Part shown: positions 1-12,487 of the stretch, in pieces | Layout: every line of letters starts with the position of its first letter | Position numbering within the stretch: position 1 is the stretch's first letter | NCBI GenBank assembly: GCA_900753685.1 | Contig: CAAEAB010000232.1 | Span: 1 to 12,487, forward strand | Origin: Lachnospiraceae bacterium | GTDB taxonomy: Bacteria > Bacillota > Clostridia > Lachnospirales > Lachnospiraceae | DNA length: 12,487 bases | Direction: 5' to 3' | The notes under the pieces: generated by a model | Databases searched by the model: none | What the model was told of the DNA's origin: nothing | What the model saw: only the letters and a program-made list of their open reading frames with translations | Position numbers and translations under genes: made by a program

Positions 1-489
1 AATATGTCCATGTGGTTTGCCGCGTTCTTTATTGTATCCATCAATACGGGAGCTTATATGGCAGAAACTGTCAGGGGCGGTATTTTATCCATTGACCCAG
101 GACAGACCGAAGGCGCCAAGGCCATCGGCATGAATCATGTTCAGACAATGCTTTATGTTATCATGCCTCAGGCGCTGCGAAACATTATGCCACAGATTGG
201 CAATAACCTGATTATTAATATTAAGGATACCTGTGTTCTTTCGATTATCGGAACAGTTGAATTATTCTATACGACGAAAGGCGTGGCCGGAGCAAAATAT
301 CTGTATTTTGAATCCTTTGCCATTGCCATGGTGATGTATTTTATCATGACGTTTGCATGTTCACGAATCCTTCGTTTCTGGGAAAGCAAGCTGGACGGGC
401 CGGATAACTACGATCTGGCAACGACAGACACGCTGGCCCATACAAGCGGAATGTACAAATATTCAGCAGAAAAGAAGGAGGAGGAGTGA
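1..489 (+). CDS. Amino acid ABC transporter permease, 5'-truncated
   Basis: This is the C-terminal part of a HisM/GlnP-type membrane permease for polar amino acid import. The reading frame is open to the left edge, so the start lies outside the window; the internal ATG at position 4 is not a convincing start. The visible protein (about 162 residues) contains the EAA cytoplasmic loop that contacts the ATPase: the segment [14 protein letters not shown] followed by EGAKAIGM and a [10 protein letters not shown] stretch, as in GlnP and HisM. A hydrophobic segment around residues 95-120 is the last membrane span, followed by a polar tail rich in Lys and Glu. The stop codon is followed at once by the start of the GlnQ-type ATPase gene, whose ribosome binding site lies inside this gene's last codons. 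That is the usual permease-ATPase coupling. Substrate cannot be read from this fragment. Confidence 0.9.
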
Positions 490-491
490 TT

Positions 492-1232
492 ATGGACGAA
501 AAGATTTTAGAAATCCGTCATTTGAGCAAGGCCTTTGGAAAAAATGTGGTACTTCGGGATATCGACTTTTCCGTCAAACAGGGGGATGTGACCTGCATTA
601 TCGGCGCTTCCGGTTCAGGAAAATCCACGTTGCTCCGCTGCATTAATTTTCTGGAAGAGCCAACGACCGGGGATATTATTTACCATGGAAAAAGTATGAT
701 GGAGCAGCGGATAAATGAAGCCGCCTATCGTGCAAAGGTGGGGATGGTTTTTCAGAGCTTTAATTTATTTAACAATATGACCGTTTTACAGAACTGTATG
801 GTGGGACAGGAAAAAGTCTTAAAGAAGGATAAGGAAACTGCACGAAGGAATGCCATGTACTTTTTAGATAAGGTCGGCATGGCGCCATACATTAATGCGA
901 AGCCGCGTCAGCTTTCCGGCGGTCAGAAACAGCGTGTAGCCATCGCCAGGGCTTTGGCTATGGAGCCGGAAGTCCTTTTATTTGACGAACCGACCTCGGC
1001 GCTGGACCCGCAGATGGTCGGAGAAGTTTTAGCCGTTATGCGTAAGCTGGCGGACGAAGGATTAACGATGATGATCGTTACCCATGAGATGGCTTTTGCC
1101 CGGGACGTATCAAATCATGTAGTTTATATGGCCGGCGGCGTTATCGTGGAGGAGGGAGAACCGAAACAGGTTTTTGGTCATCCGCAGAGTGCTCAGACCA
1201 AAGAGTTTTTAAGTCGTTTTGTTAATAGCTAA
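492..1232 (+). CDS. glnQ: Polar amino acid ABC transporter ATP-binding protein
   Basis: ATPase subunit of a polar amino acid importer, acting at the inner face of the membrane with the permease encoded just upstream. The 246-residue protein has all ABC motifs: Walker A GASGSGKS at residues 38-45, Q-loop Gln88, signature LSGGQ at 141-145, Walker B LLFDEP at 162-167, D-loop SALD at 169-172 and switch His198 in the THEM motif. Length and sequence are normal for the GlnQ/HisP group. I chose ATG 492, which sits 7 bases after a strong AAGGAGGAGG. An in-frame GTG at 486 falls inside the spacing region and would leave no room for ribosome binding. The gene begins 2 bases after the permease stop, and the next gene follows after 13 bases, so all three are probably one transcript. 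The symbol denotes the family; glutamine itself is not shown to be the substrate. Confidence 0.92.
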
Positions 1233-1245
1233 GGGAGGAATTAAG

Positions 1246-2103
1246 ATGCAGAAGATAGGATTTATCGGTCTTGGAATTATGGGGAAATCAATGACCAGAA
1301 ATTTAATGAAAGCCGGATATGAGCTTCACATTTATGCCCGAACAAAGGCAAAGGTGGAGGATATCATTAGTGAAGGCGCTGTTTTCCATGAGACAGCGGG
1401 AGAGTGTGCAAAGGCATCCGAGGCAGTGATTACCATCGTCGGTTATCCGAAGGATGTGGAAGAGGTTTATTTTGGCGATAACGGTATTCTTGACAGCGCC
1501 AAACCGGGAACCTATGTCATTGATATGACGACCTCCAGCCCGAAGCTGGCGAAAAAAATCTATGAGGCGGCAAAGGAAAAGGGAATTCACGCAATGGACG
1601 CGCCGGTAACCGGCGGCGATACGGGCGCGAAAAACGGAACTTTGTCCATTCTTGTCGGCGGAGATAAGGAAGATTACGAGGCTTGCCATGGGGTGTTTGA
1701 GGCCATGGGAACAAATATCAATTATGAGGGTGGTCCGGGCTGTGGCCAGCATACAAAGATGGCCAATCAGATTATGATTGCAGGAACCCTTTCCGGCGTC
1801 TGCGAGGCGATGAGCTATGCGAAAGCCCAGGGGCTGGATCTTCAGACACTTCTGGATTCGGTGGCTACAGGCGCGGCCGGAAGCAAACAGCTGGATGCTT
1901 TTGGCGTAAAAATTATGAACGGAGACTATGCGCCGGGATTTTTCATGAAGCATTTTATTAAGGATATGAATCTGGCGGTGGAAGAAGCAGATGCTCAGGG
2001 GCTGGATTTGAAAGTATTAAAACAGGTGCTGGCAAACTACCGGACGCTGGAAGCCGAGTACGGCGACCTGGGAACACAGACGTTAATTAAATTTTATGAA
2101 TAA
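1246..2103 (+). CDS. NAD(P)-dependent beta-hydroxyacid dehydrogenase (HIBADH / tartronate semialdehyde reductase type)
   Basis: A 285-residue soluble oxidoreductase of the 3-hydroxyisobutyrate dehydrogenase family. These enzymes interconvert 3-hydroxy acids and semialdehydes (3-hydroxyisobutyrate, glycerate/tartronate semialdehyde, sulfolactaldehyde and others). The N-terminal Rossmann fold shows GFIGLGIMG (5-13), the substrate-binding loop is DAPVTGGDTGA (118-128), and the catalytic lysine is K171 in GCGQHTKMANQ. The KxANQ form resembles GarR-type tartronate semialdehyde reductases more than the KLxNN form of many other members, which is a weak specificity hint. KDMNLAVEEA (239-248) is the usual conserved helix. 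ATG 1246 is chosen because AAGGGAGGA ends 6 bases before it; an in-frame ATG at 1219 lies inside the ATPase gene. It is the last gene of the amino acid transporter operon and is followed by a terminator. It might also serve the catabolic operon downstream, but this is inference. Confidence 0.88.
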   Translation: MQKIGFIGLGIMGKSMTRNLMKAGYELHIYARTKAKVEDIISEGAVFHETAGECAKASEAVITIVGYPKDVEEVYFGDNGILDSAKPGTYVIDMTTSSPKLAKKIYEAAKEKGIHAMDAPVTGGDTGAKNGTLSILVGGDKEDYEACHGVFEAMGTNINYEGGPGCGQHTKMANQIMIAGTLSGVCEAMSYAKAQGLDLQTLLDSVATGAAGSKQLDAFGVKIMNGDYAPGFFMKHFIKDMNLAVEEADAQGLDLKVLKQVLANYRTLEAEYGDLGTQTLIKFYE

Positions 2104-2118
2104 TTCTAAGATGAAAGA

Positions 2119-2147
2119 GGGTATTGGCACAGCCAATGCCCTTTTTT
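2119..2147 (+). terminator. Intrinsic terminator of the glnQ-HIBADH operon
   Basis: A 10-bp stem pairs GGGTATTGGC (2119-2128) with GCCAATGCCC (2132-2141) through one G-U pair, with a 3-base ACA loop, followed directly by six T residues at 2142-2147. It lies 15 bases after the dehydrogenase stop codon and is a textbook Rho-independent terminator for the plus strand. Confidence 0.92.
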
Positions 2148-2409: not shown

Positions 2410-3051
2410 ATGTCACTGAAGAGGAATTTAGACGAGCTGGTCTATGAAACAATATGCCAGGGGTTCGTTGGCGGAGCGTACACGGCTGGTATGCGTTTAG
2501 ACCCGGCGGAGCTGTCTGAACGGTATCAGGTCAGCAAAACGCCTGTGATTCAGGCATTAAAAAGAATGGCGCATGAGCGGATCGTAGAAATTACATCCGG
2601 AGGGAAATATGTTATACCTGTAGCGACCCGGCAGGAGATAGAAAATGTCTGCCAGGCGAGGCTGCTATTTGAAGAAAATGCGTTAATGGCATTGTGTAAA
2701 AACGGAAATCCACAGGCAGTTGCCATTTTGAAGGCCATCGAGGAAAAGTGCCGTAAATTTTACGAGGCAGAAAGCTATGACCAGTATTTTATGTCAGATA
2801 TGTCTTTTCACAGGACGATGGTAGAAATGGCTGGCAACGGATGCCTGGCGGATTTGTATCACATTCTGATTAATCGGTATATGGTGATCCGTAATACTAC
2901 CGGGACAACTTTAGTGCATGACCCGATTGCCGGTAAGGAACATGGACAGATGATTCGAGCCATCGAAGAGAAGGATTGCGATAAGGCAAAGCGGCTCATT
3001 GAAAACCATATCTATAAGATGGAAGAACGGTTGAATGAGAAAGTGAATTAA
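2410..3051 (+). CDS. GntR-family transcriptional regulator, FCD (FadR) subgroup
   Basis: A 213-residue DNA-binding regulator. Residues 1-70 form the winged helix, including the recognition segment LSERYQVSKTPVIQALKRM (35-53), matching the GntR consensus VSxTPVxxAL. Residues 76-205 form an all-helical FCD ligand domain. Asp130 and His134 (DMSFH), His178 (EHGQM) and His200 (ENHI) sit where FCD proteins bind a metal that helps hold a small carboxylate. The family usually senses substrates or intermediates such as sugar acids, lactate or other organic acids and mostly represses its neighbours. ATG 2410 is preceded by GGAGGG with 6 bases of spacing; an in-frame ATG at 2359 has no good ribosome binding site. 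It is expressed from its own promoter and lies 129 bases before the catabolic operon, which is its most likely target. Confidence 0.92.
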   Translation: MSLKRNLDELVYETICQGFVGGAYTAGMRLDPAELSERYQVSKTPVIQALKRMAHERIVEITSGGKYVIPVATRQEIENVCQARLLFEENALMALCKNGNPQAVAILKAIEEKCRKFYEAESYDQYFMSDMSFHRTMVEMAGNGCLADLYHILINRYMVIRNTTGTTLVHDPIAGKEHGQMIRAIEEKDCDKAKRLIENHIYKMEERLNEKVN

Positions 3052-3180: not shown

Positions 3181-4089
3181 ATGGGAAAAACAAAAGGAAT
3201 GGGTGTTATGCCGGCAGTCATGACATTCTGGAACGAGGATGAATCTTACAATGAAAAGGAAACACTGAGATATGTTCAGTGGGTAATGGATCAGGGGGCA
3301 CACAGCATTTCATGTGTAGGAAGTACAGGAGATAATATTTCCATGTCTATGGAAGAACAGAAAATGATCATGAAGAGTATTATTGATTTCGTAGACCATA
3401 GAGTTCCTGTTTATCCTGGAACCGGAAGATATTCCACAGCACAGACAATTGAATTGAGCAAATATGCACAGGAGTGCGGCGCCGATGGTGTTCTTGTCAT
3501 TATGCCTTACTATTTACAGCCGCATAAGAGAGCTGTTGTTAATCATTTCAGAAAGCTTCGCGAAGCCATTGACATCGATATTATCCTTTACAATAACCCG
3601 AGATTTTGCGGCTATGAGATGACGCCGATAGAGATTAAGGAAATGGTTGATGAAGGTCTCATTAACGGTATTAAAGCAGCTCACGGCGATGCGAATCGTA
3701 TTCATGAATTAAGATATCATTGCAAAGATAAGCTGACTGTATTGTATGGACATGATTATGCGCCGATGGAAGGCTTTCTGGCCGGCGCTGACGGATGGCT
3801 TAGCGGTATGCCTGCAATTTTCCCGAAATTCGCGAGAACTTTATTTGACATCTGTACAATTGAAAAGGATGTGGACAAGGCGATTGCTTACTGGAATAAG
3901 ATTCAGCCGTTTGTAGATTACTTTATCACTTACAATACAAATGACCCGCATTGGCATGAGGTATTTAAATATGTATTAAAATGCCAGGGCTTTGACGCAG
4001 GCCTGCCAAGAATGCCTCTTGGAGATCTGGTTCCGGAAGAAAAAGCGAAAATCGACGCTTTGCTGGCGAATATGAAGGATATTTTGTAA
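3181..4089 (+). CDS. Dihydrodipicolinate synthase / N-acetylneuraminate lyase family aldolase
   Basis: A 302-residue class I (Schiff base) aldolase of the DapA/NanA superfamily. These TIM-barrel enzymes form an imine between a lysine and a 2-oxo acid, usually pyruvate, and cleave, condense or dehydrate. The Schiff-base lysine is K165 in GIKAAHGD, the catalytic tyrosine is Tyr137 in YNNP, and the carboxylate-binding loop is GSTGD (47-51), where most relatives have GTTGE or GSTGE. YYLQP at 110-114 replaces the common YYNKP. The context (importer, racemase, dehydrogenase, kinase) points to a catabolic 2-oxo-acid aldolase or dehydratase and not lysine biosynthesis. ATG 3181 follows AAGGAGGA (3166-3173) with 7 bases of spacing. 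It is the first gene of the operon; the binding-protein gene follows after 54 bases with no terminator between. Exact substrate unknown. Confidence 0.9.
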   Translation: MGKTKGMGVMPAVMTFWNEDESYNEKETLRYVQWVMDQGAHSISCVGSTGDNISMSMEEQKMIMKSIIDFVDHRVPVYPGTGRYSTAQTIELSKYAQECGADGVLVIMPYYLQPHKRAVVNHFRKLREAIDIDIILYNNPRFCGYEMTPIEIKEMVDEGLINGIKAAHGDANRIHELRYHCKDKLTVLYGHDYAPMEGFLAGADGWLSGMPAIFPKFARTLFDICTIEKDVDKAIAYWNKIQPFVDYFITYNTNDPHWHEVFKYVLKCQGFDAGLPRMPLGDLVPEEKAKIDALLANMKDIL

Positions 4090-4143
4090 TTAAATTATTA
4101 TTAAATAAAGAGAAGGATATTTTAGCATGTGAGGAGGAATAAT

Positions 4144-5367
4144 ATGAAAAAGAGTTGGTTGGCGGGGGTAATGTCAGCAGCTTTAATTGTATCGTTGCTG
4201 GCAGGATGCAGTTCAAACTCATCGGGGGCAGCAGAAACAAAGGATACGTCGGCGTCATCGGAGACAACGGCAGAAACGACTGGAGACACAGCGAATACGG
4301 CAGGAGATTCGGACACGATTTTAATCGGAGTTTCCGCTTCCATTACAGGTTCCGCGCCGACAAACGGTCTGCGTACCCAGCAGGGAGCGCAGCTGGCTGT
4401 GGATGAGATTAATGCGGCCGGCGGCGTTCTTGGAAAGCAGTTGGAGCTTTATGTGGCGGATGACGGCGGTTTGGCAGACACAGGTATCAATGCGACCAAT
4501 TTGATTGCGAGCCAGGGGGTTGTGGCTCAGGTCGGACCAAACTTATCCGGTTTGGCATTGGCTGTTGAAGGGATTGTTTCTGAAGCCGGATATCCGATGC
4601 TTGTCGGCGCGACCAGTCCGAAGCTTGTCACAGAGGTAGATAATGAGTGGTTGTTCAGAATTCGCGCTTCAGATTCTATTCAGGCCGAATTGGCGGCGGT
4701 TTATGCGACAGAAAATCTTGGATGTAAAAAGATTGGTTTATTTACCAATAGTAACGACTATGGAACCGGCGCCCGCACCGTAGCGGAAGCTTACTTTAAA
4801 GAGCATGGTATTGATTATGTGACAGAAGAGCATAATACCGGCGATACAGATATGACAAGCCAGATTTTGAAGCTAATGAATGAAGGCGTCGATTGTGTCA
4901 TTGTCTGGACAGATGATGCGGAAACAGCATTGGCTGCCCGTCAGTTCTATGATTTAGGGCTGGACGTACCTGTCATCGGCTCTACATCCATTTCCACACC
5001 GCAGGTGAATGAACTGTGTGAACCGGAATGGCTGGATAACTGGTATAGCTGTACCGATTTTACCACATCCAATCCATCTGAAATCGTTCAGAACTTTGTT
5101 GAGAACTTTAAAGCAGCCTATGGCGAAGAACCTGAACTGTATGCGACGACCTATTATGGTTCAATCTATATCGTAGCGGATGCTATTGAGCGGGCCGGAA
5201 GCACAGACCCGGCGGCAATCCGTGATGCTCTGGCGGCAACCGAAGGATTGGAAGGACCTCTGGCTACTTATACGGCGGATGATATACGCGAAATGGTTCA
5301 TGGTGGAACAATTTGTAAAATGGTAGACGGAAAAGCAGAATTCCTGGAATACATACTTGTTGAATAA
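4144..5367 (+). CDS. livK: LIV-type ABC transporter substrate-binding lipoprotein
   Basis: A 407-residue extracytoplasmic binding protein of the branched-chain amino acid / amide family (Peripla_BP_6 fold). It begins with a lipoprotein signal: positive start MKKSW, hydrophobic core, and lipobox LLAGC with the lipidated Cys22. Residues 23-57 are a Ser/Thr/Ala/Glu-rich linker to the membrane. The mature domain starts with ILIGVSASITG and AVDEINAAGGVLG, the family hallmark, and continues with GPNLSG and TNSNDYGTGA segments. The family binds leucine/isoleucine/valine but also urea, amides, aromatic acids and other carboxylates, so the ligand is not fixed by homology; the neighbours suggest a hydroxy or oxo acid. 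ATG 4144 follows GAGGAGGA (4131-4138) with about 5 bases of spacing; the in-frame ATG at 4129 lies before that site. A hairpin downstream probably keeps its mRNA more abundant than that of the permeases. Confidence 0.92.
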   Translation: MKKSWLAGVMSAALIVSLLAGCSSNSSGAAETKDTSASSETTAETTGDTANTAGDSDTILIGVSASITGSAPTNGLRTQQGAQLAVDEINAAGGVLGKQLELYVADDGGLADTGINATNLIASQGVVAQVGPNLSGLALAVEGIVSEAGYPMLVGATSPKLVTEVDNEWLFRIRASDSIQAELAAVYATENLGCKKIGLFTNSNDYGTGARTVAEAYFKEHGIDYVTEEHNTGDTDMTSQILKLMNEGVDCVIVWTDDAETALAARQFYDLGLDVPVIGSTSISTPQVNELCEPEWLDNWYSCTDFTTSNPSEIVQNFVENFKAAYGEEPELYATTYYGSIYIVADAIERAGSTDPAAIRDALAATEGLEGPLATYTADDIREMVHGGTICKMVDGKAEFLEYILVE

Positions 5368-5389
5368 AAGTAATTCCTCTTCCTTTTTT

Positions 5390-5421
5390 AAATAGCTGCG
5401 CCTTAAAAAGCGCAGCTATTT
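5390..5421 (+). terminator. Intercistronic hairpin between livK and livH (partial terminator or mRNA stabiliser)
   Basis: A perfect 12-bp stem, AAATAGCTGCGC (5390-5401) with GCGCAGCTATTT (5410-5421), has an 8-base loop. Only one further T follows before a C, so the T-tract is too short for a strong terminator. It lies between the binding-protein stop and the livH start in an otherwise continuous operon. Such hairpins commonly lower expression of the membrane genes or protect the upstream message from 3' exonucleases, giving excess binding protein. There is no T-run on the minus strand side. Confidence 0.75.
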
Positions 5422-5460
5422 TCATAAAAGAGAGGTCTTGGCGGGATAGGAGGTCGTTAT

Positions 5461-6327
5461 ATGGTTGGGATTTTGATACAGCTCATTGTCAGCGGTATTG
5501 CCATGGGGTTTATCTACGCGTTGGTTGGTATCGAATATACATTAATATGGAATGCTTCCGGCGTGTTGAATTTTAGTCATGATAAGTTGATTACTCTTGG
5601 CGCGTATATTTTCGGCGGAACCTATATTATCGGTTTGGGAATGGGGTATGTGCCGGGGATTATTTTAAGCTTAATTACGGTGGCGTTGATTGGTTTGGTT
5701 ATTGCAAGGCTCATTTTTATTCCTCTTCGGAATATGACGATGATTTACACCATTATGGCTAACGTAATGCTTGGAAAGATTATTATTGAGTTTATTCGTT
5801 TGTTCTGGGGACCGGTACCTTTCTCTGTTCCGGGATTTTTGGTCGGCACAGTGAAAGTCGGGGGAATTGTCATTTCTATTGCGAATATTGCGATTATCGT
5901 GGTAGCGGCTGTCTGTGTTGGCGCTTTGCAATTGTTTTTATATAAGACGAAGCCGGGAAAGGCCATGCGCTGTGTGGCTCAAAACCGGAATGCTTCACAG
6001 TTGATGGGAATTGACGTGAAGTACGTCATGATGATTACGGTGGCAATCAGTATGATGATCTGTTGTCTCATTGGTCTGCTTGTCTCACCGCTTTTAAATA
6101 TAAGTACAACAATGTCGAATATGATCGGACTGAAAGGTTTTGCTGCAGGCGTTATCGGCGGTTTTGGTTATCTGCCGGGGGCCATTATCGGGGGCTTGGT
6201 CATCGGTATTGTCGAAAATCTTGCGTCGATGGTACTTCCGTCGGTCTATAAGGATATCGTAGCCTTTGTTTTACTCGTCGTATTCTTGTTAATCCGCCCG
6301 AAAGGTATTACGGGAAAGACACGATAG
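5461..6327 (+). CDS. livH: LIV-type ABC transporter permease LivH
   Basis: A 288-residue, very hydrophobic inner membrane subunit that pairs with LivM to form the channel. The N-terminus shows the family pattern GIAMGFIYALVGIEYTLIW, then NFSHDKLITLGAYIFG, which corresponds to the usual NFAHGxxxMLGAY; an Asp replaces the common Gly after His. The cytoplasmic coupling segment KTKPGKAMRCVAQNRNASQL with MGIDV corresponds to the usual AMRAxAxxxxxAxLxGI. The late GFGYLPGAIIGGLVIGIVEN is typical. Length is normal for LivH. ATG 5461 follows AGGAGG (5448-5453) with 7 bases. It is separated from the binding protein by the hairpin at 5390-5421 and from livM by 13 bases. Family assignment is firm, transported substrate is not. 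Confidence 0.93.
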   Translation: MVGILIQLIVSGIAMGFIYALVGIEYTLIWNASGVLNFSHDKLITLGAYIFGGTYIIGLGMGYVPGIILSLITVALIGLVIARLIFIPLRNMTMIYTIMANVMLGKIIIEFIRLFWGPVPFSVPGFLVGTVKVGGIVISIANIAIIVVAAVCVGALQLFLYKTKPGKAMRCVAQNRNASQLMGIDVKYVMMITVAISMMICCLIGLLVSPLLNISTTMSNMIGLKGFAAGVIGGFGYLPGAIIGGLVIGIVENLASMVLPSVYKDIVAFVLLVVFLLIRPKGITGKTR

Positions 6328-6340
6328 AAAGGAGTAAAGC

Positions 6341-7321
6341 ATGCAGAAAATTGAAAATAAGAGAATTATCTGGATTACGGCCGCATTTATCATACTGGCC
6401 TGCGCGCCGTTAGTTGTTAAAAATAATTATTATATAACGCTGTTAAATCAGCTGACAATTAATATGATCGTTGTTTTCGGATTGAATTTTGTGACCGGTC
6501 TTACTGGGCAGATGAATCTGGGTACGGCGGGTATTTATGCTATAGGCGCATATATTTCGGCAATTTTGTCCAGGACCTACGGTATTTCGCCGTGGCTGAC
6601 AATGCTCATCGCAATCTGCGCTGGATTTTTGATTGGCCGGGGGCTTGGATATCCGAGCTTAAAACTGCGGGGACCATATCTTTCGTTGACGACGCTGGCT
6701 TTCACAGAAATTGTGCGTATTTTTGCAACGAATCTGACAGAGCTTACCGGCGGTACTCAGGGACTGAAAAGCATTCCACGTTTCTCTATTGGGCCAATTG
6801 CTCTGGATACAAATGTGAAATATTTCTATTTTGTCCTGGTGGTTGCAATTATTATGTGTCTCATTTCTGTCCGTATCGTCTATTCCAAATGGGGGCGGGA
6901 GTTCCGGGCGGTTCGTGATAATGTGGACGCTATTGAATCGCTGGGGCTCGACGTGAAAAAAATTAAAATCCGCGCATTTACGCTGGCAGCCATGTATGGC
7001 GCCTTTGCCGGAGCTTTGTACGCCCACTTTAATCAGTATATTACAAGTCTTACATTTACTACAGATTTATCCATTAACTATGTAATCATGCTGATGGTCG
7101 GCGGAATAGGCGATATTTTTGGCAATATTATCGGCGCGTCGATTATCACTATGCTGCCGGAGCTTTTAAGATTTTTGGGAGATTATTATCAGATTACTTA
7201 TTATATTCTTGTTTTAATCAGCGCTCTGTTTTTGCCAAACGGTCTTGTATCCATTTACGGCAGAGTGGCGCGGAGATTTAAAAAGAAACCGGCAGTGGAA
7301 GGCGGTGAAGGCCATGAGTAA
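6341..7321 (+). CDS. livM: LIV-type ABC transporter permease LivM
   Basis: A 326-residue integral membrane permease, partner of LivH. Hallmarks are GLNFVTGLTGQMNLGTAGIY (compare the usual GLNLxxGxxGQxSLGHA), the SLKLRGPYLSLTTLAF and EIVRI segment, GGTQGL, and the C-terminal VGGIGDIFGNIIGA. The hydrophilic loop WGREFRAVRDNVDAIESLGL near residues 188-207 is the EAA-like contact with the ATPases. The C-terminal tail is short and basic, then Glu/Gly-rich (FKKKPAVEGGEGHE). AAAGGAG at 6328-6334 gives 6-base spacing to ATG 6341. The last 8 bases overlap the start of livG, so translation is probably coupled. Confidence 0.93.
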   Translation: MQKIENKRIIWITAAFIILACAPLVVKNNYYITLLNQLTINMIVVFGLNFVTGLTGQMNLGTAGIYAIGAYISAILSRTYGISPWLTMLIAICAGFLIGRGLGYPSLKLRGPYLSLTTLAFTEIVRIFATNLTELTGGTQGLKSIPRFSIGPIALDTNVKYFYFVLVVAIIMCLISVRIVYSKWGREFRAVRDNVDAIESLGLDVKKIKIRAFTLAAMYGAFAGALYAHFNQYITSLTFTTDLSINYVIMLMVGGIGDIFGNIIGASIITMLPELLRFLGDYYQITYYILVLISALFLPNGLVSIYGRVARRFKKKPAVEGGEGHE

Positions 7322-8123
7322 TGAACAGATTATATTGGAAGTAAAGGGGCTGACGAAACGGTTTTATGGCCTGGTGGCGGTCAATGACCTGAATTTTCAG
7401 GTAAAGAAGGGGCGTATCCATGCGCTGATCGGTCCAAACGGGGCAGGAAAAACAACGACGGTCAATATGATTACGGGAGACGGTCCGCAGACAGAAGGGG
7501 AAGTATTGTTTTGCGGACAGTCCATTTCAAAAATGCCGATTTATGCCAGGGCACAGCTTGGTATTGGCCGGACCTTCCAGAATATTAAATTATTTTCCAC
7601 AATGACGGTGATGGAAAATCTTATGATGGGCGCCCAGAGTAAGACGAATCAGAATATTCTGACATGGCTGTTTAATGTGGGGAAAGCCAATGCAGAAGAA
7701 AAAACGCTGCGGGAGAAGGCCGAAGAGGTATTGAACTTTATTGGGATGTATAGATATAAAGACGAGGTTGTAAGTAATCTGGCCTATGGCCGGCAAAAAA
7801 TGACCGAGCTTGGAAGAACGCTGATGACAGATCCGAAGCTCATCCTTTTGGATGAACCGGCCGCCGGCCTAAACCCTTCCGAGCGTAAGGAGTTTATTGA
7901 TATTATCCAGAAGGTTTATGAGAAGGATGTGGATATGTTTCTCATTGAACACAATATGGATGTTGTCATGAATCTGAGCCATGACATTACGGTATTGAAT
8001 TTTGGCTGCAAGATCGCATCGGGCAGTCCAAAGGAAATTCAGCAAAATGAGGAGGTAATCACGGCATATCTGGGCGAAGGCTACCGTCAGAAAATGGCAA
8101 AGGAGGCTGGAAAGAATGCTTAA
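7314..8123 (+). CDS. livG: LIV-type ABC transporter ATP-binding protein LivG
   Basis: A 269-residue cytoplasmic ATPase. Walker A is GPNGAGKT (40-47), Q-loop Gln89 lies in GRTFQN, Walker B is LILLDEP (176-182) followed by AAGLNP, and switch His213 is in IEHNMD. The signature is LAYGRQ (156-161), a variant of the LivG form LxYGQQ. AAGLNPSE and IEHNM are typical of LivG as opposed to LivF. ATG 7314 overlaps the livM stop by 8 bases. The best ribosome site is GGAAGGCGG ending about 8 bases upstream, weaker than those of neighbours, which fits re-initiation after livM. Longer in-frame starts inside livM (7245) would add residues unrelated to the family. Confidence 0.93.
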   Translation: MSNEQIILEVKGLTKRFYGLVAVNDLNFQVKKGRIHALIGPNGAGKTTTVNMITGDGPQTEGEVLFCGQSISKMPIYARAQLGIGRTFQNIKLFSTMTVMENLMMGAQSKTNQNILTWLFNVGKANAEEKTLREKAEEVLNFIGMYRYKDEVVSNLAYGRQKMTELGRTLMTDPKLILLDEPAAGLNPSERKEFIDIIQKVYEKDVDMFLIEHNMDVVMNLSHDITVLNFGCKIASGSPKEIQQNEEVITAYLGEGYRQKMAKEAGKNA

Positions 8124-8826
8124 AGTAAATCATATCGATGCTTATTATGGTAAAGTCCAGGTCCTCCACGATGTGAGCCTGGAGGTTGGTGAAAATGAAA
8201 TTATTTCTCTGATTGGGGCCAACGGCGCCGGAAAAAGTACCTTGATGAAGACGATCATGGGGCTGATTCGGCCAAAGCAGGGAACGATTGAATTTCAGAA
8301 GGAGGATTTGACAAAAATCCGCAATACAAAAATCGTATCCAAGGGCGTCGTCTATGTGCCGGAAGGGCGGGAGGTTTTTCCGGAAATGTCGGTTCGGGAT
8401 AATCTGGAAATGGGCGCTTACTGCCGTAAATTTTCATTAAAGGAAATGAATGAACATCTGGAAGAAATGTATACTATTTTTCCGAGGCTTGGCGAACGGC
8501 AGAAACAGCTGGCCGGTTCCTTAAGCGGCGGCGAGCAGCAGATGCTGGCAATTGCCCGGGGGCTGATGAGCGATCCAAAGCTGATCATGTTTGATGAGCC
8601 GTCTCTGGGATTAGCGCCGGTCGTTGTGGAAGATATGTTCCGGGTCATCGTGGATATTAATAAGACAAAGAAAATACCGATTCTTTTGGTAGAGCAGAAT
8701 GCCTTTATGGCGCTGAGTATTTCAAATCGGTGTTATGTTATGGAAAATGGCCGGATTACGTTAAACGGTCCGAGTAAAGAATTGTTGGAGAGCGACGAAG
8801 TCAGGAAGTCCTATCTTGGCGGATAA
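8116..8826 (+). CDS. livF: LIV-type ABC transporter ATP-binding protein LivF
   Basis: A 236-residue ATPase, second nucleotide-binding subunit of the importer. Walker A GANGAGKS (34-41), signature LSGGEQQ (136-142), Walker B LIMFDEP (156-162) and the LivF-specific VEQN (192-195), where Gln replaces the usual switch His, are all present. YVPEGREVFPEMSVRDNLEMGA (80-101) is the classic LivF Q-loop region. Length is standard. ATG 8116 overlaps the livG stop by 8 bases, repeating the livM-livG arrangement, and has AGGAGG (8101-8106) 9 bases upstream. With it the importer is complete: binding protein, two permeases and two ATPases. Confidence 0.94.
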   Translation: MLKVNHIDAYYGKVQVLHDVSLEVGENEIISLIGANGAGKSTLMKTIMGLIRPKQGTIEFQKEDLTKIRNTKIVSKGVVYVPEGREVFPEMSVRDNLEMGAYCRKFSLKEMNEHLEEMYTIFPRLGERQKQLAGSLSGGEQQMLAIARGLMSDPKLIMFDEPSLGLAPVVVEDMFRVIVDINKTKKIPILLVEQNAFMALSISNRCYVMENGRITLNGPSKELLESDEVRKSYLGG

Positions 8827-8848
8827 AAGTGTTGGGAGGAATAGTAAG

Positions 8849-9952
8849 ATGGATTTAAGTATTAATGAAACAATTAGATATAATAAATCGGGTCCGGCAA
8901 GATATTGCTGCCGGCCGGAAGTATGGAGTGAAATTGAAAAGCTGTTGACGCCTTTTGGAAAACGGGCGATTGTCAGTGGTGGAACCCGCGCCAGAGCATC
9001 TATTCAGGAAAAACTCTTTCCGGCCCTGGAAGCGGCAGGCATTGAATATAAGGTCAACGCCTTTGTGGGCGAGAGCAGTATGAATAATGTGGAGAAGCTT
9101 GTTGAAATATGTCGGGAATACAAGCCGGACTTTATCATTGGAACCGGCGGAGGCAAATCACTGGATACGGCCAAATATGCTGCGGAAATCTATGGTATTC
9201 CAATCATTACTATACCGACCATCGCGGCAACCTGCGCGGCGGCCAGTAATCAGATTATTGTTTATTCGGATGAAGGCGAGTATTTGGAAAATGTTTATCC
9301 GAAAACCAATCCGCCGCTGGTCATCGTTGACCCGGAGGTTATTTTGAAAGCGCCGAAAAAATATTTAATTTCCGGTATTTATGATTCCCTGGCAAAATGG
9401 TATGAAGGAAGCGCTTCGCTGCCGGGGTCAGACAATGCGGATACCTTTGATTATATGGCCCTGGCTGTGGCAGGCATGTTAAAGGAGCATTTGTTCCGGG
9501 ACGGAAAAGCGGCTCTGGATGCCCTGGATACGGGAATGCTTACGAAAGAGTTTATTAATGTAGTTAATTTAAATATTTATACGGCGGCAACGGTTCAGGC
9601 CCTGGGAATAAAGGCTGTCCGCAACGGCATCGCCCATTCCACTCAAAATGGTTTGACCAAACTGCCGGGCGGACATCATATTACCCACGGTGAGAAGGTC
9701 GCTTACGGGATTGCAGTTCAGCTTGCTGTCTTAAATGCGCCGACATCCGAAAAGGAAGAATTAAAGAGACTCTATGATTCGATGGGGCTTGTGTCGACCT
9801 TTAAGGGCCTTAATTTGGACTTTACAGATGAAAATATACATACGGTGGCGTTAAAAGCTGTCTCCGACGTCTTGATGCGGACGAAACCATTTGATAATAT
9901 TACAGAAGAGATGATGTGTCAGGCCATCCGAGAGGTGGAAGTCACTTTTTAA
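8849..9952 (+). CDS. Iron-type alcohol dehydrogenase family, glycerol / hydroxycarboxylate dehydrogenase-like
   Basis: A 367-residue NAD(P)-dependent, metal-dependent dehydrogenase of the GldA branch of group III alcohol dehydrogenases. The nucleotide loop is GTGGGKSLDTAK (98-109). Metal ligands are predicted as Asp179 (GIYDSLAKWYE), His263 (NGIAHSTQNGL) and His280 (ITHGEKVAYG); their spacing of 84 and 17 residues matches that of bacterial glycerol dehydrogenases. The branch includes glycerol dehydrogenase and also 2-oxoacid-reducing hydroxycarboxylate dehydrogenases of the HcxA/YbdH type. Given the LarA-type racemase two genes on, I lean towards a 2-hydroxy acid substrate, but this is inference. 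ATG 8849 follows GGGAGGA (8834-8840) with 8 bases. It sits 22 bases after livF in the same operon, and the kinase starts 33 bases later. Confidence 0.88.
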   Translation: MDLSINETIRYNKSGPARYCCRPEVWSEIEKLLTPFGKRAIVSGGTRARASIQEKLFPALEAAGIEYKVNAFVGESSMNNVEKLVEICREYKPDFIIGTGGGKSLDTAKYAAEIYGIPIITIPTIAATCAAASNQIIVYSDEGEYLENVYPKTNPPLVIVDPEVILKAPKKYLISGIYDSLAKWYEGSASLPGSDNADTFDYMALAVAGMLKEHLFRDGKAALDALDTGMLTKEFINVVNLNIYTAATVQALGIKAVRNGIAHSTQNGLTKLPGGHHITHGEKVAYGIAVQLAVLNAPTSEKEELKRLYDSMGLVSTFKGLNLDFTDENIHTVALKAVSDVLMRTKPFDNITEEMMCQAIREVEVTF

Positions 9953-9985
9953 CACGAAGCTGGAATATATAAATGGGGTGTTGGA

Positions 9986-10882
9986 ATGAAGATTTTGAAC
10001 TTTGGCTCATTAAATATTGATAATGTTTATCATGTGGATGATTTCGTTCGGCCGGGAGAAACGAAAAAAGCATTAAGTTTTGAAGTGTTTCCCGGCGGTA
10101 AGGGCCTGAACCAGTCGGTGGCGTTAGCAAGGGCCGGATCCGACGCGTATCATGCGGGTAAAATCGGAGCCGACGGCCGGTGGCTGGTGGATTTAATGCG
10201 CCGGTCCGGCGTGAAGGCGGAAGCATCCGACGGCGCGGCGGTTTTTGTCCGGGAAACAGACTGCGGGACGGGTAAGGCGATTATCCAGGTAAACAGTGAA
10301 GGGCAGAACGCCATTATTCTTTATGAGGGAGCCAATAAAACGATCGATTGGGCTTTCGTTGATGAAGTATTCGGTTATTTTGAAGCCGGAGATATTTTGG
10401 TTCTTCAAAATGAAATAAATATGGTGCCGGAGATGATTGATCTGGCCTGGGAACGGGGAATGCAGATTGCTCTCAATCCGTCTCCGGCCAATGAGGTGAT
10501 TCATCAGTGCGATTTGAGAAAGGTTCGGTGGCTGCTGCTCAATGAAATTGAAGGCGAATGGCTGACCGGAAAGAAGAAGCCGGAAGAGATGGCGGAAACC
10601 TTGATGGAAGCTTATCCGAATATGGAGATTATTCTAACCCTGGGCAGCCAGGGAGTTTTGTATCGCTCGGAAAGCAGAAAGTGTTATCAGGCGGCTTTTG
10701 AGGTAAATACGGTGGATACGACCGGGGCCGGTGATACATTTACCGGGTATTTTCTCAAATGTGCGGCTGATGGCGAGTCGCCGGAAACGGCATTAAGGGT
10801 GGCCTCTAAGGCGGCGGCGCTTGCTGTGTCCCGGCCGGGAGCTGCCGTGTCTATTCCATATTGGGCTGAGGTGGTCGAATAG
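9986..10882 (+). CDS. PfkB-family carbohydrate kinase, ribokinase-like
   Basis: A 298-residue ATP-dependent kinase of the ribokinase/PfkB family, phosphorylating a hydroxyl group of a sugar or sugar acid in the cytoplasm. The first family signature is GGKGLNQ (37-43) and the second DTTGAGDTF (244-252), with Asp250 as catalytic base and GAGD as anion hole. NID at 10-12 near the N-terminus and LNPSPA (163-168) also fit ribokinase. Length is normal. Candidate substrates include ribose-like sugars, 2-keto-3-deoxy acids or glycerate-like products, and the sequence does not decide. The upstream ribosome site (GGGGTG near 9974-9979) is weak compared with its neighbours, so it may be translated less. 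The next gene begins 7 bases after its stop. Confidence 0.9.
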   Translation: MKILNFGSLNIDNVYHVDDFVRPGETKKALSFEVFPGGKGLNQSVALARAGSDAYHAGKIGADGRWLVDLMRRSGVKAEASDGAAVFVRETDCGTGKAIIQVNSEGQNAIILYEGANKTIDWAFVDEVFGYFEAGDILVLQNEINMVPEMIDLAWERGMQIALNPSPANEVIHQCDLRKVRWLLLNEIEGEWLTGKKKPEEMAETLMEAYPNMEIILTLGSQGVLYRSESRKCYQAAFEVNTVDTTGAGDTFTGYFLKCAADGESPETALRVASKAAALAVSRPGAAVSIPYWAEVVE

Positions 10883-10889
10883 AAGGAGG

Positions 10890-12215
10890 ATGACGATAAT
10901 TTCAGAGAATATTTTAAATTGCGGCAGTCAGGAAATGACACAGCTTTTGTCGGATGTCCGGCTGCCGCGATTTTATAAAGTCAGACAGAAATTTGATAAA
11001 ACGCATTTTGATAGTGAAACAATTGTATCAGTATTAAAGCAGGAATTTGAGGCCATTTCTGTTCGGGGACAGCGGATTGCCGTTACGGCAGGAAGTCGGG
11101 GCGTTGCCAATATCGGACTCTTTTTAAAAACAATTGTGGAGATTTTAAAGACCAGAGGGGCAAACCCTTTTATTGTGCCGGCCATGGGAAGTCATGGCGG
11201 AGCTTCTGCCGAAGGACAGAAGGCGATTCTCACCGGCTACGGAATTACGGAGGAAGCCATGGGCTGCCCGATTTATTCTTCGATGGAAGTTAAAAAAATC
11301 GGAAAGACGGTGGACGGCCGTGAGGTTTTTATCGATAAAATGGCGGCCGAGGCTGACGGCATCGTTGTGGTCGGGCGGATTAAGCCCCACACAGCCTTTC
11401 GAGGACCTTATCAGAGCGGTGTGATGAAAATGATGGCGATTGGTTTGGGAAAACAATATGGCGCCTCGGTCTGTCATGGCGAGGGTTTCCAGCGAATGGC
11501 GTATAATGTGCAGGTCTTTGGCAGCGCTATTCTTAAACACGCAAATATTTTGTGCGGCGTGGGAATTATTGAGAATGCTTTCGACGAGACGAAAAAGATC
11601 AAAGTAATGCGCCGGGAGGACATTGAATTCATGGAGCCAGCGCTGTTAAAGGAGGCGGAGCAAAATATGCCCCGGATTTTATTTCCGTCTTGCGATGTTT
11701 TGATTGTGGATGAAATCGGGAAAAATTTTAGCGGCGACGGAATGGATCCGAACGTGACGGGGACATTTGCTACGCCATTTGCTGCGGGAGGTATTCATGC
11801 GGAACGCATCGGTCTATTGGACTTGTCACCAGAAACCCATGGAAACGGTATGGGGACAGGAATGGCCAGCGTTATTACTGAGCGGGTTTTTAAACAGTTG
11901 GACGTGAATATGATGTATATAAATGCCCTGACATGTAAAAATCTCAATGGTTCCAGAATTCCCTGTGTTATGACAAGTGATAGGGAGGCGATACAGTTTT
12001 GCCTGAAAAGCTGTATTCAGGCGGACCTGCTTTATCCGAAAATCATCCGGATATTTAACAGCCAGTTTGTTGAATATATGTGGATTTCAGAAGCCTTGGC
12101 TGAAAGACTGCCGGAGGGAGTGGAAATTCTTTCCGGGCCGGAGGAATTATCTTTTGATTCAGAAGGAAATCTTACAGACCGTTTTCCGAGACAACGGGGC
12201 CAAAGGGTTCTATAA
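10890..12215 (+). CDS. LarA-family (DUF2088) nickel-pincer 2-hydroxyacid racemase/epimerase
   Basis: A 441-residue member of the lactate racemase LarA superfamily. Known LarA uses a nickel-pincer nucleotide bound covalently to a lysine, with histidines for catalysis and nickel binding, and inverts C2 of 2-hydroxy acids by hydride transfer. In this protein His102 (MGSHGGA), His167 (KPHTAF), Lys180 (QSGVMK) and His196 (SVCHGEG) match H108, H174, K184 and H200 of Lactobacillus plantarum LarA by motif, and the K-to-H spacing of 16 residues is identical. The segment around K180 reads SGVMK instead of SGGRK, with three extra residues after His167, so this is not a plain lactate racemase. Pincer biosynthesis genes larB, larC and larE are not in the window. 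The start is uncertain: AAGGAGG abuts ATG 10890 with no spacer, so ATG 10935 or a rare ATA/ATT start remain possible. Last gene of the operon. Confidence 0.85.
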   Translation: MTIISENILNCGSQEMTQLLSDVRLPRFYKVRQKFDKTHFDSETIVSVLKQEFEAISVRGQRIAVTAGSRGVANIGLFLKTIVEILKTRGANPFIVPAMGSHGGASAEGQKAILTGYGITEEAMGCPIYSSMEVKKIGKTVDGREVFIDKMAAEADGIVVVGRIKPHTAFRGPYQSGVMKMMAIGLGKQYGASVCHGEGFQRMAYNVQVFGSAILKHANILCGVGIIENAFDETKKIKVMRREDIEFMEPALLKEAEQNMPRILFPSCDVLIVDEIGKNFSGDGMDPNVTGTFATPFAAGGIHAERIGLLDLSPETHGNGMGTGMASVITERVFKQLDVNMMYINALTCKNLNGSRIPCVMTSDREAIQFCLKSCIQADLLYPKIIRIFNSQFVEYMWISEALAERLPEGVEILSGPEELSFDSEGNLTDRFPRQRGQRVL

Positions 12216-12224
12216 ATATGGAAA

Positions 12225-12270
12225 GCCGCTGCTCCACAGCTAGTTAAATTGTGGAGCAGCGGCGCTTTTT
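12225..12270 (+). terminator. Strong intrinsic terminator of the catabolic operon
   Basis: A perfect 14-bp GC-rich stem pairs GCCGCTGCTCCACA (12225-12238) with TGTGGAGCAGCGGC (12250-12263) around an 11-base loop, followed by GC and five T residues (12266-12270). It starts 10 bases after the LarA-like gene and separates it from the convergent minus-strand gene. On the minus strand the stem is followed by TTTCC only, so it may stop that transcript weakly as well. Confidence 0.92.
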
Positions 12271-12273
12271 CTG

Positions 12274-12487
12274 TTATTTAGCACATGGTGGGCATGTGGT
12301 TGGTGCGTCGAAAGAAGGGTTGAAGGCGTAGAAGTTTCTGGAATCCAGTTGTTCCTGTAAAATTCTCAGTGTTTCACCGAAACGCTGGAAATGGACGACT
12401 TCACGTGCTCGAAGGAAACGGATCGGGTCGGCCACTTCCGGGTCCTTTACAAGGCGGAGAATGTTATCGTAGGTGGAACGGGCTTTC
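12274..12487 (-). CDS. Manganese catalase / spore coat CotJC-like protein, C-terminal fragment
   Basis: Reading the minus strand from the right edge gives 70 residues in one open frame ending in TAA (complement of 12274-12276). The gene runs off the window, so its start is not seen. The segment DPEVADPIRFLRAREVV (15-31) followed by HFQRFGE is characteristic of non-haem manganese catalases and their CotJC relatives in spore formers. The His of REVVHF corresponds to a dimanganese ligand. These ferritin-like proteins break down hydrogen peroxide or form part of the spore coat. The C-terminus ends in NPSFDAPTTCPPCAK, with a CxxC pair near the end. It is convergent to the LarA-like gene and unrelated to the operon by position. 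Full length would be needed to decide between CotJC (about 190 residues) and larger catalases. Confidence 0.85.
   Translation of the reverse strand, partial: KARSTYDNILRLVKDPEVADPIRFLRAREVVHFQRFGETLRILQEQLDSRNFYAFNPSFDAPTTCPPCAK

What the first reader, a model, noticed from the sequence alone, without database searches (positions are those of the whole stretch)
3181..12215. Nine-gene LIV importer-aldolase-dehydrogenase-kinase-LarA operon: a possible undescribed hydroxy-acid catabolic pathway
Seen: tight spacing, several overlaps, one internal hairpin and one strong end terminator define a single operon of a DapA-type aldolase, livKHMGF, a GldA/HcxA-like dehydrogenase, a PfkB kinase and a LarA-family enzyme. 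Known: LarA relatives racemise or epimerise 2-hydroxy acids, DapA relatives cleave or dehydrate 2-oxo acids, PfkB kinases phosphorylate polyols and sugar acids. Inference: the imported compound is a 2-hydroxy acid or aldonate-like acid, inverted at C2, oxidised, cleaved to pyruvate plus an aldehyde, with one product trapped by the kinase. I know no characterised pathway with exactly this set; the absence of a dehydratase argues against standard glucarate/galactarate or KDG routes.
Basis: partly seen in the sequence, partly recalled or inferred. Interest (0 to 1): 0.72.

Follow-up and report, generated by a model that had tools for sequence, protein, structure and literature searches.

The report
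Sugar-acid operon with a nickel-cofactor epimerase
A DNA fragment, probably from a gut Clostridia bacterium, carries one gene cluster that likely imports and breaks down an unknown sugar-like acid with the help of a nickel-cofactor enzyme group whose reaction is not reported in the papers read here; the kind of pathway is familiar, the exact combination is not.

Summary
The nine genes sit as described: dapA-like, livKHMGF, an iron-ADH, a PfkB kinase and a LarA homologue, bounded by strong terminators and preceded by a GntR/FCD regulator the finding left out. The last gene belongs to NCBIfam "nickel-pincer isomerase group 22" (504 bits, cut-off 400); the papers read list no activity for that group. 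It keeps the cofactor ligands and both catalytic histidines of LarA. In part of the loci elsewhere, group 22 lies beside altronate/galactarate dehydratases, DapA-family genes, sugar-acid kinases or larB/C/E. One spirochaete operon has the same logic with a LIV importer (dehydratase-larA-livKHMGF-eda-kinase, gntR). This supports a sugar-acid/2-hydroxy-acid route, with a dehydrogenase where that relative has a dehydratase. Against it: the binding protein keeps all four tested LivJ residues for an alpha-amino acid, and the dehydrogenase resembles HcxA only by one motif, overall being as close to glycerol dehydrogenase. The exact set could not be surveyed in Clostridia; substrate and step order are inferred. 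Verdict: new variant of a known kind, worth assaying. Side finding: 14 of 26 spirochaete genomes with group 22 have no larB, larC or larE over the thresholds used.

The parts
2113..2147 (+). strong intrinsic terminator closing the upstream hisM-glnQ-garR-like operon
   Evidence: -22.9 kcal/mol, z -7.08, 0 of 200 shuffles as good; T-run follows
2410..3051 (+). GntR/FCD regulator, probably of the operon that follows
   Evidence: PF00392, PF07729; a GntR/FCD gene also ends the group 22 operon of L048, and GntR-family genes lie near group 22 in L044, L046, L094
3181..4089 (+). DapA-superfamily enzyme, predicted 2-oxo-acid aldolase (a dehydratase of KdgD type is not excluded), not DHDPS
   Evidence: PF00701 179 bits; Schiff-base Lys165 and Tyr137 kept; the Arg of the E. 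coli DapA YNVPSR motif is Phe here; TIGR00674 161 bits against cut-off 206
4144..5367 (+). LIV-type substrate-binding lipoprotein
   Evidence: PF13458; LivJ Ser79/Thr102/Tyr150/Glu226 equivalents (list recalled) S135/T157/Y206/E260 kept
5390..5421 (+). internal hairpin between livK and livH, possible attenuator
   Evidence: -18.6 kcal/mol, z -5.6
5461..6327 (+). LivH permease
6341..7321 (+). LivM permease
7314..8123 (+). LivG ATPase
8116..8826 (+). LivF ATPase
   Evidence: PF00005; named LivF by gene order and by 48% identity to the L048 gene in the same position
8849..9952 (+). iron-containing dehydrogenase with the HcxA motif, predicted 2-hydroxy/2-oxo-acid oxidoreductase
   Evidence: D179, H263, H280 (metal ligands as recalled) kept; PTIAATCAA as in E. 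coli HcxA where GldA has PTIASTDAP; overall score is slightly closer to GldA (169 against 158 bits)
9986..10882 (+). PfkB-family kinase of ribokinase type
   Evidence: TIGR02152 225.7 bits against cut-off 299.65; the ribose-contact residues of RbsK (list recalled) are conserved
10890..12215 (+). LarA homologue, NCBIfam NPN isomerase group 22, predicted C2 epimerase/racemase of a sugar acid
   Evidence: NF052515 504.2 bits against 400; R70, H102, H167, K180, H196 match LarA R75, H108, H174, K184, H200
12225..12263 (+). end terminator of the operon
   Evidence: about -30 kcal/mol, z -7.12

Best explanation
A GntR-controlled catabolic operon for an imported polar acid of the aldonate / 2-hydroxy-acid class. 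Proposed order: the LIV-type ABC importer brings the compound in; the group 22 LarA homologue, loaded with the nickel-pincer nucleotide, inverts C2; the HcxA-motif dehydrogenase oxidises the 2-hydroxyl to a 2-oxo acid; the DapA-type enzyme forms a Schiff base with the 2-oxo acid and splits off pyruvate; the ribokinase-type kinase phosphorylates the released aldehyde sugar and so commits it to central metabolism. Shown by sequence: the families, the kept catalytic residues, the gene arrangement, and the recurrence of group 22 with sugar-acid enzymes in part of the loci elsewhere. Inferred: the substrate, the order and direction of the steps, and that the dehydrogenase replaces the dehydratase of the L048 operon, which would fit a 3-deoxy-aldonate or another 2-hydroxy acid without a 3-hydroxyl. 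If the kinase acts on the cleaved aldose, its ribokinase-type pocket favours a sugar of four or five carbons over glyceraldehyde.
For: Group 22 membership over the curated cut-off with cofactor ligands and both histidines kept; the K-to-H spacing of 16 residues equals that of canonical homologues. Spirochaete locus L048: galactarate/altronate-type dehydratase, larA group 22, livKHMGF, eda (over its cut-off), a KDG-type kinase, GntR/FCD, the same logic as the window with another dehydratase/aldolase/kinase set. L055 and L056: DapA, PfkB, SDR, Zn-ADH, D-2-hydroxyacid dehydrogenase, TTT transporter and group 22 together (families checked for L055). L054: group 22 twice, a DapA-family gene and a galactarate dehydratase over its cut-off (738.8 against 730.85 bits). 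Loktanella: ilvD, ldh-family, dapA-family, altronate dehydratase, group 22, a hypothetical gene, larB, larC in a row. Within 10 kb of 33 spirochaete group 22 genes: GD_AH dehydratase near 7 (0.18 expected), DHDPS family near 6 (0.69 expected), PfkB near 5 (1.44 expected). HcxA motif of the dehydrogenase.
Against: The binding protein keeps all four tested LivJ residues for an alpha-amino acid, while that of the sugar-acid operon L048 has lost two of them. The dehydrogenase is overall as close to GldA as to HcxA (33.4% and 34.8% identity, 169 and 158 bits; glycerol-dehydrogenase model 241.9 bits against HcxA-type model 197.8, both under cut-off). The window's DapA and dehydrogenase have no close relatives in spirochaetes (DapA 39% in 2 of 383 genomes, dehydrogenase 0 of 383 at E <= 1e-50). 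The Loktanella and Sulfitobacter DapA proteins are only 19.5% and 20.8% identical to the window's. 22 of 33 spirochaete group 22 genes have neither a DHDPS-family nor a GD_AH gene within 10 kb, and 21 of 33 have none of DHDPS, GD_AH or listed PfkB genes. The positions of D72 and K298 of LarA are not kept. Whether the host makes the cofactor is unknown.
Confidence: 0.42

Rival explanations
1. Ordinary aldonate route with the dehydratase elsewhere. Group 22 inverts an aldonate at C2 so that an unlinked altronate- or IlvD-type dehydratase can make a 2-oxo-3-deoxy acid; the DapA enzyme cleaves it, and the iron-ADH reduces the aldehyde or balances redox.
For: GD_AH dehydratases are the most enriched of the three partners tested around group 22, and UxaA or IlvD genes lie near it on plasmids; in L048 the same importer type is paired with such a dehydratase. 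The iron-ADH is overall as close to glycerol and glycolaldehyde enzymes as to HcxA.
Against: No dehydratase gene among the 13 + strand genes of the window, although nine genes are packed together; a DapA-family dehydratase is not excluded.
Confidence: 0.3
2. The imported compound carries an alpha-amino group (an amino acid, an amino sugar acid or a sugar-amino-acid conjugate), and the enzymes act on its carbon skeleton after deamination elsewhere.
For: LivJ Ser79, Thr102, Tyr150 and Glu226 equivalents are all kept in the window's binding protein, and Tyr150 and Glu226 are lost in that of L048; the best solved matches are named branched-chain amino-acid or Leu/Ile/Val binding proteins.
Against: No aminotransferase, deaminase or amidase in the operon; several group 22 partners elsewhere are sugar-acid enzymes.
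Confidence: 0.15
3. A branched-chain amino-acid importer that happens to be co-transcribed with unrelated enzymes.
For: Binding-protein residues as above.
Against: An independent livKHMGF set sits between group 22 larA and eda in L048; NF011933 LivJ/K score 115.5 against cut-off 477.
Confidence: 0.07

Closest known systems
LarA superfamily, D-gluconate 2-epimerase GntE (groups 19 and 20; PMC7583248, results section read)
   Same: NPN ligands and catalytic histidines; sugar-acid gene context; fold inferred from family membership only
   Different: Group 22 is a separate NCBIfam group with no member in Table 1 of that paper; D72 and K298 are kept in GntE2 according to the paper but not here; partners differ
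Spirochaete operon L048 (genome G337), found here; the paper searches showed no description of such a set
   Same: group 22 larA, livKHMGF, an aldolase, a PfkB-superfamily kinase and a GntR/FCD regulator
   Different: has a galactarate/altronate-type dehydratase, Eda-type aldolase and KDG-type kinase instead of an iron-ADH, DapA-type aldolase and ribokinase-type kinase; its binding protein lacks the LivJ Glu and Tyr
E. coli HcxA (hydroxycarboxylate dehydrogenase A, name from RefSeq)
   Same: PTIAATCAA motif and metal-ligand positions, 34.8% identity
   Different: model score 197.8 against cut-off 429; E. coli GldA scores slightly higher by BLAST; substrate not tested
E. coli YagE, 2-dehydro-3-deoxygluconate aldolase
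   Same: 29% identity, Schiff-base lysine, no Arg at the DapA position
   Different: different substrate-loop residues; function here not tested

Membership tests
LarA superfamily, NCBIfam group 22 (NF052515) | profile score over the curated cut-off | tested here: met
   504.2 bits against 400
LarA superfamily, NCBIfam group 22 (NF052515) | NPN-binding residues R75, K184, H200 of LarA | tested here: met
   R70, K180, H196; invariant in 21 of 21 aligned group 22 sequences; the K/H pair was placed by motif and spacing because the profile alignment is weak there
LarA superfamily, NCBIfam group 22 (NF052515) | catalytic H108 and H174 | tested here: met
   H102 and H167
LarA superfamily, NCBIfam group 22 (NF052515) | catalytic D72 and K298 as in LarA, Mar2 and GntE2 | tested here: not met
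   no Asp at the D72 position, no Lys at the K298 position in the alignment; the C-terminal part of that alignment is weak. These residues define characterised LarA enzymes, not the NCBIfam group
LarA superfamily, NCBIfam group 22 (NF052515) | host makes the NPN cofactor (larB, larC, larE) | not testable with these tools
   no genome held for the window; of 26 spirochaete genomes with group 22, 11 have all three, one has larC alone and 14 have none over the thresholds
LarA superfamily, NCBIfam group 22 (NF052515) | inversion of a 2-hydroxy acid | not testable with these tools
   needs assay
Glycerol dehydrogenase GldA | Asp of the STDAP motif of E. coli GldA (role in glycerol binding recalled, not from a call) | tested here: not met
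   Cys in the window, in 11 of 11 aligned relatives (11 of the 120 listed) and in HcxA; Asp in GldA
Glycerol dehydrogenase GldA | NF006941 (PRK09423) cut-off | tested here: not met
   241.9 against 336 bits, but this is the best-scoring model
HcxA (PRK10586) | motif and metal-ligand positions | tested here: met
HcxA (PRK10586) | equivalog cut-off | tested here: not met
   197.8 against 429 bits
DHDPS (DapA, lysine synthesis) | Arg138 (number recalled) and TIGR00674 cut-off | tested here: not met
   Phe at the position; 161.1 against 206.15 bits
Ribokinase | ribose-contact residues of RbsK (Asn14, Asp16, Gly42, Lys43, Asn46, Glu143, Asp255; list recalled) | tested here: met
   all conserved in the pairwise alignment
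Ribokinase | TIGR02152 cut-off | tested here: not met
   225.7 against 299.65 bits
Branched-chain amino-acid importer LIV | alpha-amino/alpha-carboxyl frame of LivJ (residue list recalled) | tested here: met
   S135, T157, Y206, E260
Branched-chain amino-acid importer LIV | NF011933 cut-off | tested here: not met
   115.5 against 477 bits
Branched-chain amino-acid importer LIV | ligand is Leu/Ile/Val | not testable with these tools
   needs binding assay

The most novel reading that the evidence does not exclude
The operon is an uncharacterised sugar-acid pathway in which C2 inversion by a group 22 nickel-pincer enzyme is followed by oxidation by an HcxA-like dehydrogenase instead of dehydration, so that 3-deoxy-aldonates are taken apart to pyruvate and an aldose; and group 22 enzymes often work in cells that do not make the nickel-pincer cofactor themselves but acquire it from neighbours, as the spirochaete genomes without larB, larC and larE suggest.
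Probability: 0.12. Interest if true: 0.8.

Novelty: new variant of a known kind. Interest (0 to 1): 0.45.

Why it matters
NCBIfam group 22 occurs in Bacillota, Spirochaetota, Alphaproteobacteria and haloarchaea (over the cut-off), yet no activity is listed for it in the two assay papers read. Part of the contexts collected here point to sugar acids (altronate/galactarate type, perhaps four-carbon acids), which makes a short substrate panel a fair test. The window adds a variant with a dehydrogenase where a relative has a dehydratase. If the lack of cofactor genes in more than half of the sampled spirochaete carriers is real, the source of the cofactor in those cells becomes an open, testable question.

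Tried and rejected
Plain lactate racemase: rejected on group assignment and on T168-A169 after the second histidine where LarA has Phe-Phe. DHDPS for lysine synthesis: rejected on residues and score. Plain glycerol dehydrogenase: made unlikely by the motif, not excluded, since overall scores are slightly nearer to it.

Finding the exact operon elsewhere: viral contigs gave nothing for larA, its alignment, dapA or the dehydrogenase; genome contigs gave only T. parvum; spirochaete genomes gave no close dapA or dehydrogenase relative. rang in no genome at E <= 1e-50, so it is an empty answer without a positive control. As a substitute I compared 'longest contig' lengths in the protein searches (best 120 rows each): one larA relative and one dehydrogenase relative share 50860, and two dapA/dehydrogenase pairs share 94319 and 104748; this hints at co-location but proves nothing. 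Profile search of the PDB with the group 22 alignment found no structure at E <= 0.01. Paper searches for the set of genes, for HcxA/YbdH and for a GldA D121N change gave nothing on the question.

First attempts at mapping LarA residues used wrongly chosen frames and were discarded; one search uses six of ten fetched canonical homologues, chosen by their D-x-T-R motif, so it cannot be used to say how common that motif is.


Full report
What is there. The window holds thirteen genes on the + strand and the end of one on the - strand. Genes 1-3 (partial HisM-type permease, GlnQ-type ATPase, a 2-hydroxy-3-oxopropionate-reductase-family dehydrogenase) end in a strong terminator at 2113-2147. A GntR/FCD regulator at 2410-3051 follows, then the nine genes of the finding with gaps of -8 to 93 bases and a strong terminator at 12225-12263. 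Beyond it, on the - strand, lies the end of a manganese-catalase-family gene. The closest listed relative of the dapA-like protein is 97% identical and named Frisingicoccus sp. by a source, so the fragment is probably from that part of the Lachnospiraceae.

The LarA homologue. It scores 504.2 bits on NF052515, 'nickel pincer cofactor-dependent isomerase, group 22', cut-off 400. In 21 aligned relatives the equivalents of LarA R75, H108, H174, K184 and H200 are invariant, and the distance from the lysine to the last histidine is 16 residues as in canonical homologues. The equivalents of D72 and K298 are not kept (the C-terminal alignment is weak). In the 2020 survey (PMC7583248, results section read) 25 groups were defined and 13 proteins assayed; Table 1 lists none of group 22, and 'group 22' does not occur in the main text. 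The 2024 paper (PMC11770544; abstract, first part of the results, one further results section and passages read) does not contain 'LarAH22'. Supplementary tables were not readable, so what the authors list there for group 22 is unknown to me.

Context of group 22 on plasmids. 113 records match; I read 11 of them, one without annotation. All ten annotated proteins pass the group 22 cut-off (443.7-554.9 bits). Of the ten, five have a UxaA/altronate-dehydratase gene in the stretch (Sporomusa, Sulfitobacter, Loktanella, Pseudosulfitobacter, Natronococcus), five have a named larB, larC or larE gene (Paenibacillus, Sulfitobacter, Loktanella, Pseudosulfitobacter, Roseicitreum), and four have a DapA-family gene (Sulfitobacter, Loktanella, Pseudosulfitobacter, Roseicitreum). 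Haloarcula, Haladaptatus and Haloferax gibbonsii have none of these three; the last two have enolase-superfamily (MLE) genes nearby. Paenibacillus has uxaC, group 22, an SDR, larE, larB, larC in a run. The direct linkage to cofactor genes supports NPN dependence in those cases. Stretches were 8-12 kb on each side, and the ten were picked by me, not drawn at random.

Context in Spirochaetota. 26 of 392 genomes have group 22 over the cut-off, with 33 genes. L048 reads: galactarate/altronate-type dehydratase, group 22, livK, livH, livM, livG, livF, eda (over its cut-off), a KDG-type kinase (under the cut-offs), and GntR/FCD on the other strand. This is the nearest parallel to the window. L055 and L056 carry DapA, PfkB, SDR, Zn-ADH, D-2-hydroxyacid dehydrogenase, TTT transporter and group 22 (L055 families). 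L054 has group 22 twice, a DapA-family gene and a galactarate dehydratase over its cut-off. L053 has a gene best matched by the D-threonate kinase model (162 bits, cut-off 450; domains PF07005 and PF17042), and L053, L063 and L064 have a PdxA-family gene near or beside group 22. These PdxA proteins pass the general PdxA cut-off (vitamin B6 model) and stay under the D-threonate-4-phosphate model, so a link to four-carbon acids is only a suggestion; erythronate and threonate are C2 epimers (established chemistry).

Rates. Within 10 kb of the 33 genes, GD_AH dehydratases are near 7 (0.18 expected, Poisson P about 1e-9), DHDPS-family genes near 6 (0.69 expected, P about 8e-5) and PfkB genes near 5 (1.44 expected, P 0.016). 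22 of 33 have neither of the first two, and 21 of 33 none of the three. Two of the 33 are neighbours in G386 and count twice; the PfkB listing was cut, so its count is a lower bound; bacterial genes cluster by function, so the Poisson values are generous; several contigs are short.

The other enzymes. The Fe-ADH keeps the positions that I recall as metal ligands and reads PTIAATCAA, as does E. coli HcxA, where GldA reads PTIASTDAP. Against this, its identity to HcxA and GldA is nearly the same (34.8% and 33.4%) and its scores are slightly better for GldA and the glycerol-dehydrogenase model. I recall, without a call to support it, that the Asp of GldA binds glycerol and that changing it lets the enzyme act on D-lactate; the paper search found nothing. 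The DapA-like protein keeps the Schiff-base lysine and the YNxP tyrosine and lacks the Arg of DHDPS. The kinase keeps the ribose contacts of RbsK; the KDG-type kinases of L048 and L055 align poorly there. The binding protein keeps the LivJ residues for the alpha-amino and alpha-carboxyl groups, and the L048 binding protein keeps two of the four. This is the strongest result against a simple hydroxy-acid ligand.

Mechanism. I take the best reading to be import, C2 inversion, oxidation at C2, aldol cleavage to pyruvate plus an aldose, and phosphorylation of the aldose. Families and residues are shown; substrate, order and direction are inferred. The ribokinase-type pocket suggests that the kinase acts on an aldose of four or five carbons, which would make the acid one of seven or eight carbons; this is a guess. 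The main rival keeps the sugar-acid class but puts a dehydratase elsewhere in the genome.

Cofactor genes. Among the 26 spirochaete genomes with group 22, LarB (NF033503) and LarE (TIGR00268) pass their cut-offs in the same 11, LarC (PF01969, E <= 1e-10) is present in these 11 and in G311, and 14 genomes have none over the thresholds. Weak LarE-model matches under the cut-off occur in all 14 and weak LarB-model matches in six of them; I take these for other families of the same superfamilies without having tested it. The 14 include T. parvum (G001, record titled complete genome, which also holds a second LarA-superfamily gene) and G386 (its group 22 contig of 3.59 Mb is about the stated genome size). 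Controls: Thermotoga maritima, Methanosarcina acetivorans and Haloferax volcanii, which ring for LarA-type models, also ring for LarB, LarC and LarE models; but Corynebacterium glutamicum, whose LarA homologue was assayed in PMC7583248, rings for LarB and LarC and not for LarE, so the LarE model can miss a real case. Most of the other genomes are fragmented, so part of the 14 may be missing data. The opposite pattern, larB/C/E without larA in about 15% of genomes, is stated in PMC11796402 (passages read). I saw no report of the pattern found here (passages and a listing only).

Verdict.

Noticed in passing
spirochaete genomes G001, G071, G210, G225, G321, G328, G330, G337, G343, G346, G359, G361, G383, G386: Group 22 LarA homologues in genomes with no LarB, LarC or LarE over the thresholds (14 of 26), among them Treponema parvum (complete genome), which has a second LarA-superfamily gene as well. 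The LarE model also misses Corynebacterium glutamicum, so single-gene absences are not safe.
   Followed up: partly
L048:8137-17959: Operon dehydratase - group 22 larA - livKHMGF - eda - KDG-type kinase with a GntR/FCD gene: a LIV-type importer in what looks like a sugar-acid operon; its binding protein has lost the LivJ Glu226 and Tyr150 equivalents.
   Followed up: yes
L053, L063, L064: PdxA-family dehydrogenase near group 22 larA, in L053 with a D-threonate-kinase-like gene on the other side; may point to erythronate/threonate, but the PdxA proteins fit the vitamin B6 model better.
   Followed up: partly
window 1-2103: Separate upstream operon: polar-amino-acid-type ABC importer with a 2-hydroxy-3-oxopropionate-reductase-family dehydrogenase, closed by its own terminator; possibly related metabolism.
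   Followed up: no
window 12277-12486, - strand: End of a manganese-catalase-family protein (PF05067), which resembles spore coat CotJC as I recall it; would fit a spore-forming host.
   Followed up: partly
L088:6353-10360: In G370 a ribokinase-like kinase and an SIS-domain protein (PF01380) lie within about 2 kb of a divergent GntR-dapA-like pair (dapA 38% identical to the window's), an echo of the window's set without larA.
   Followed up: no
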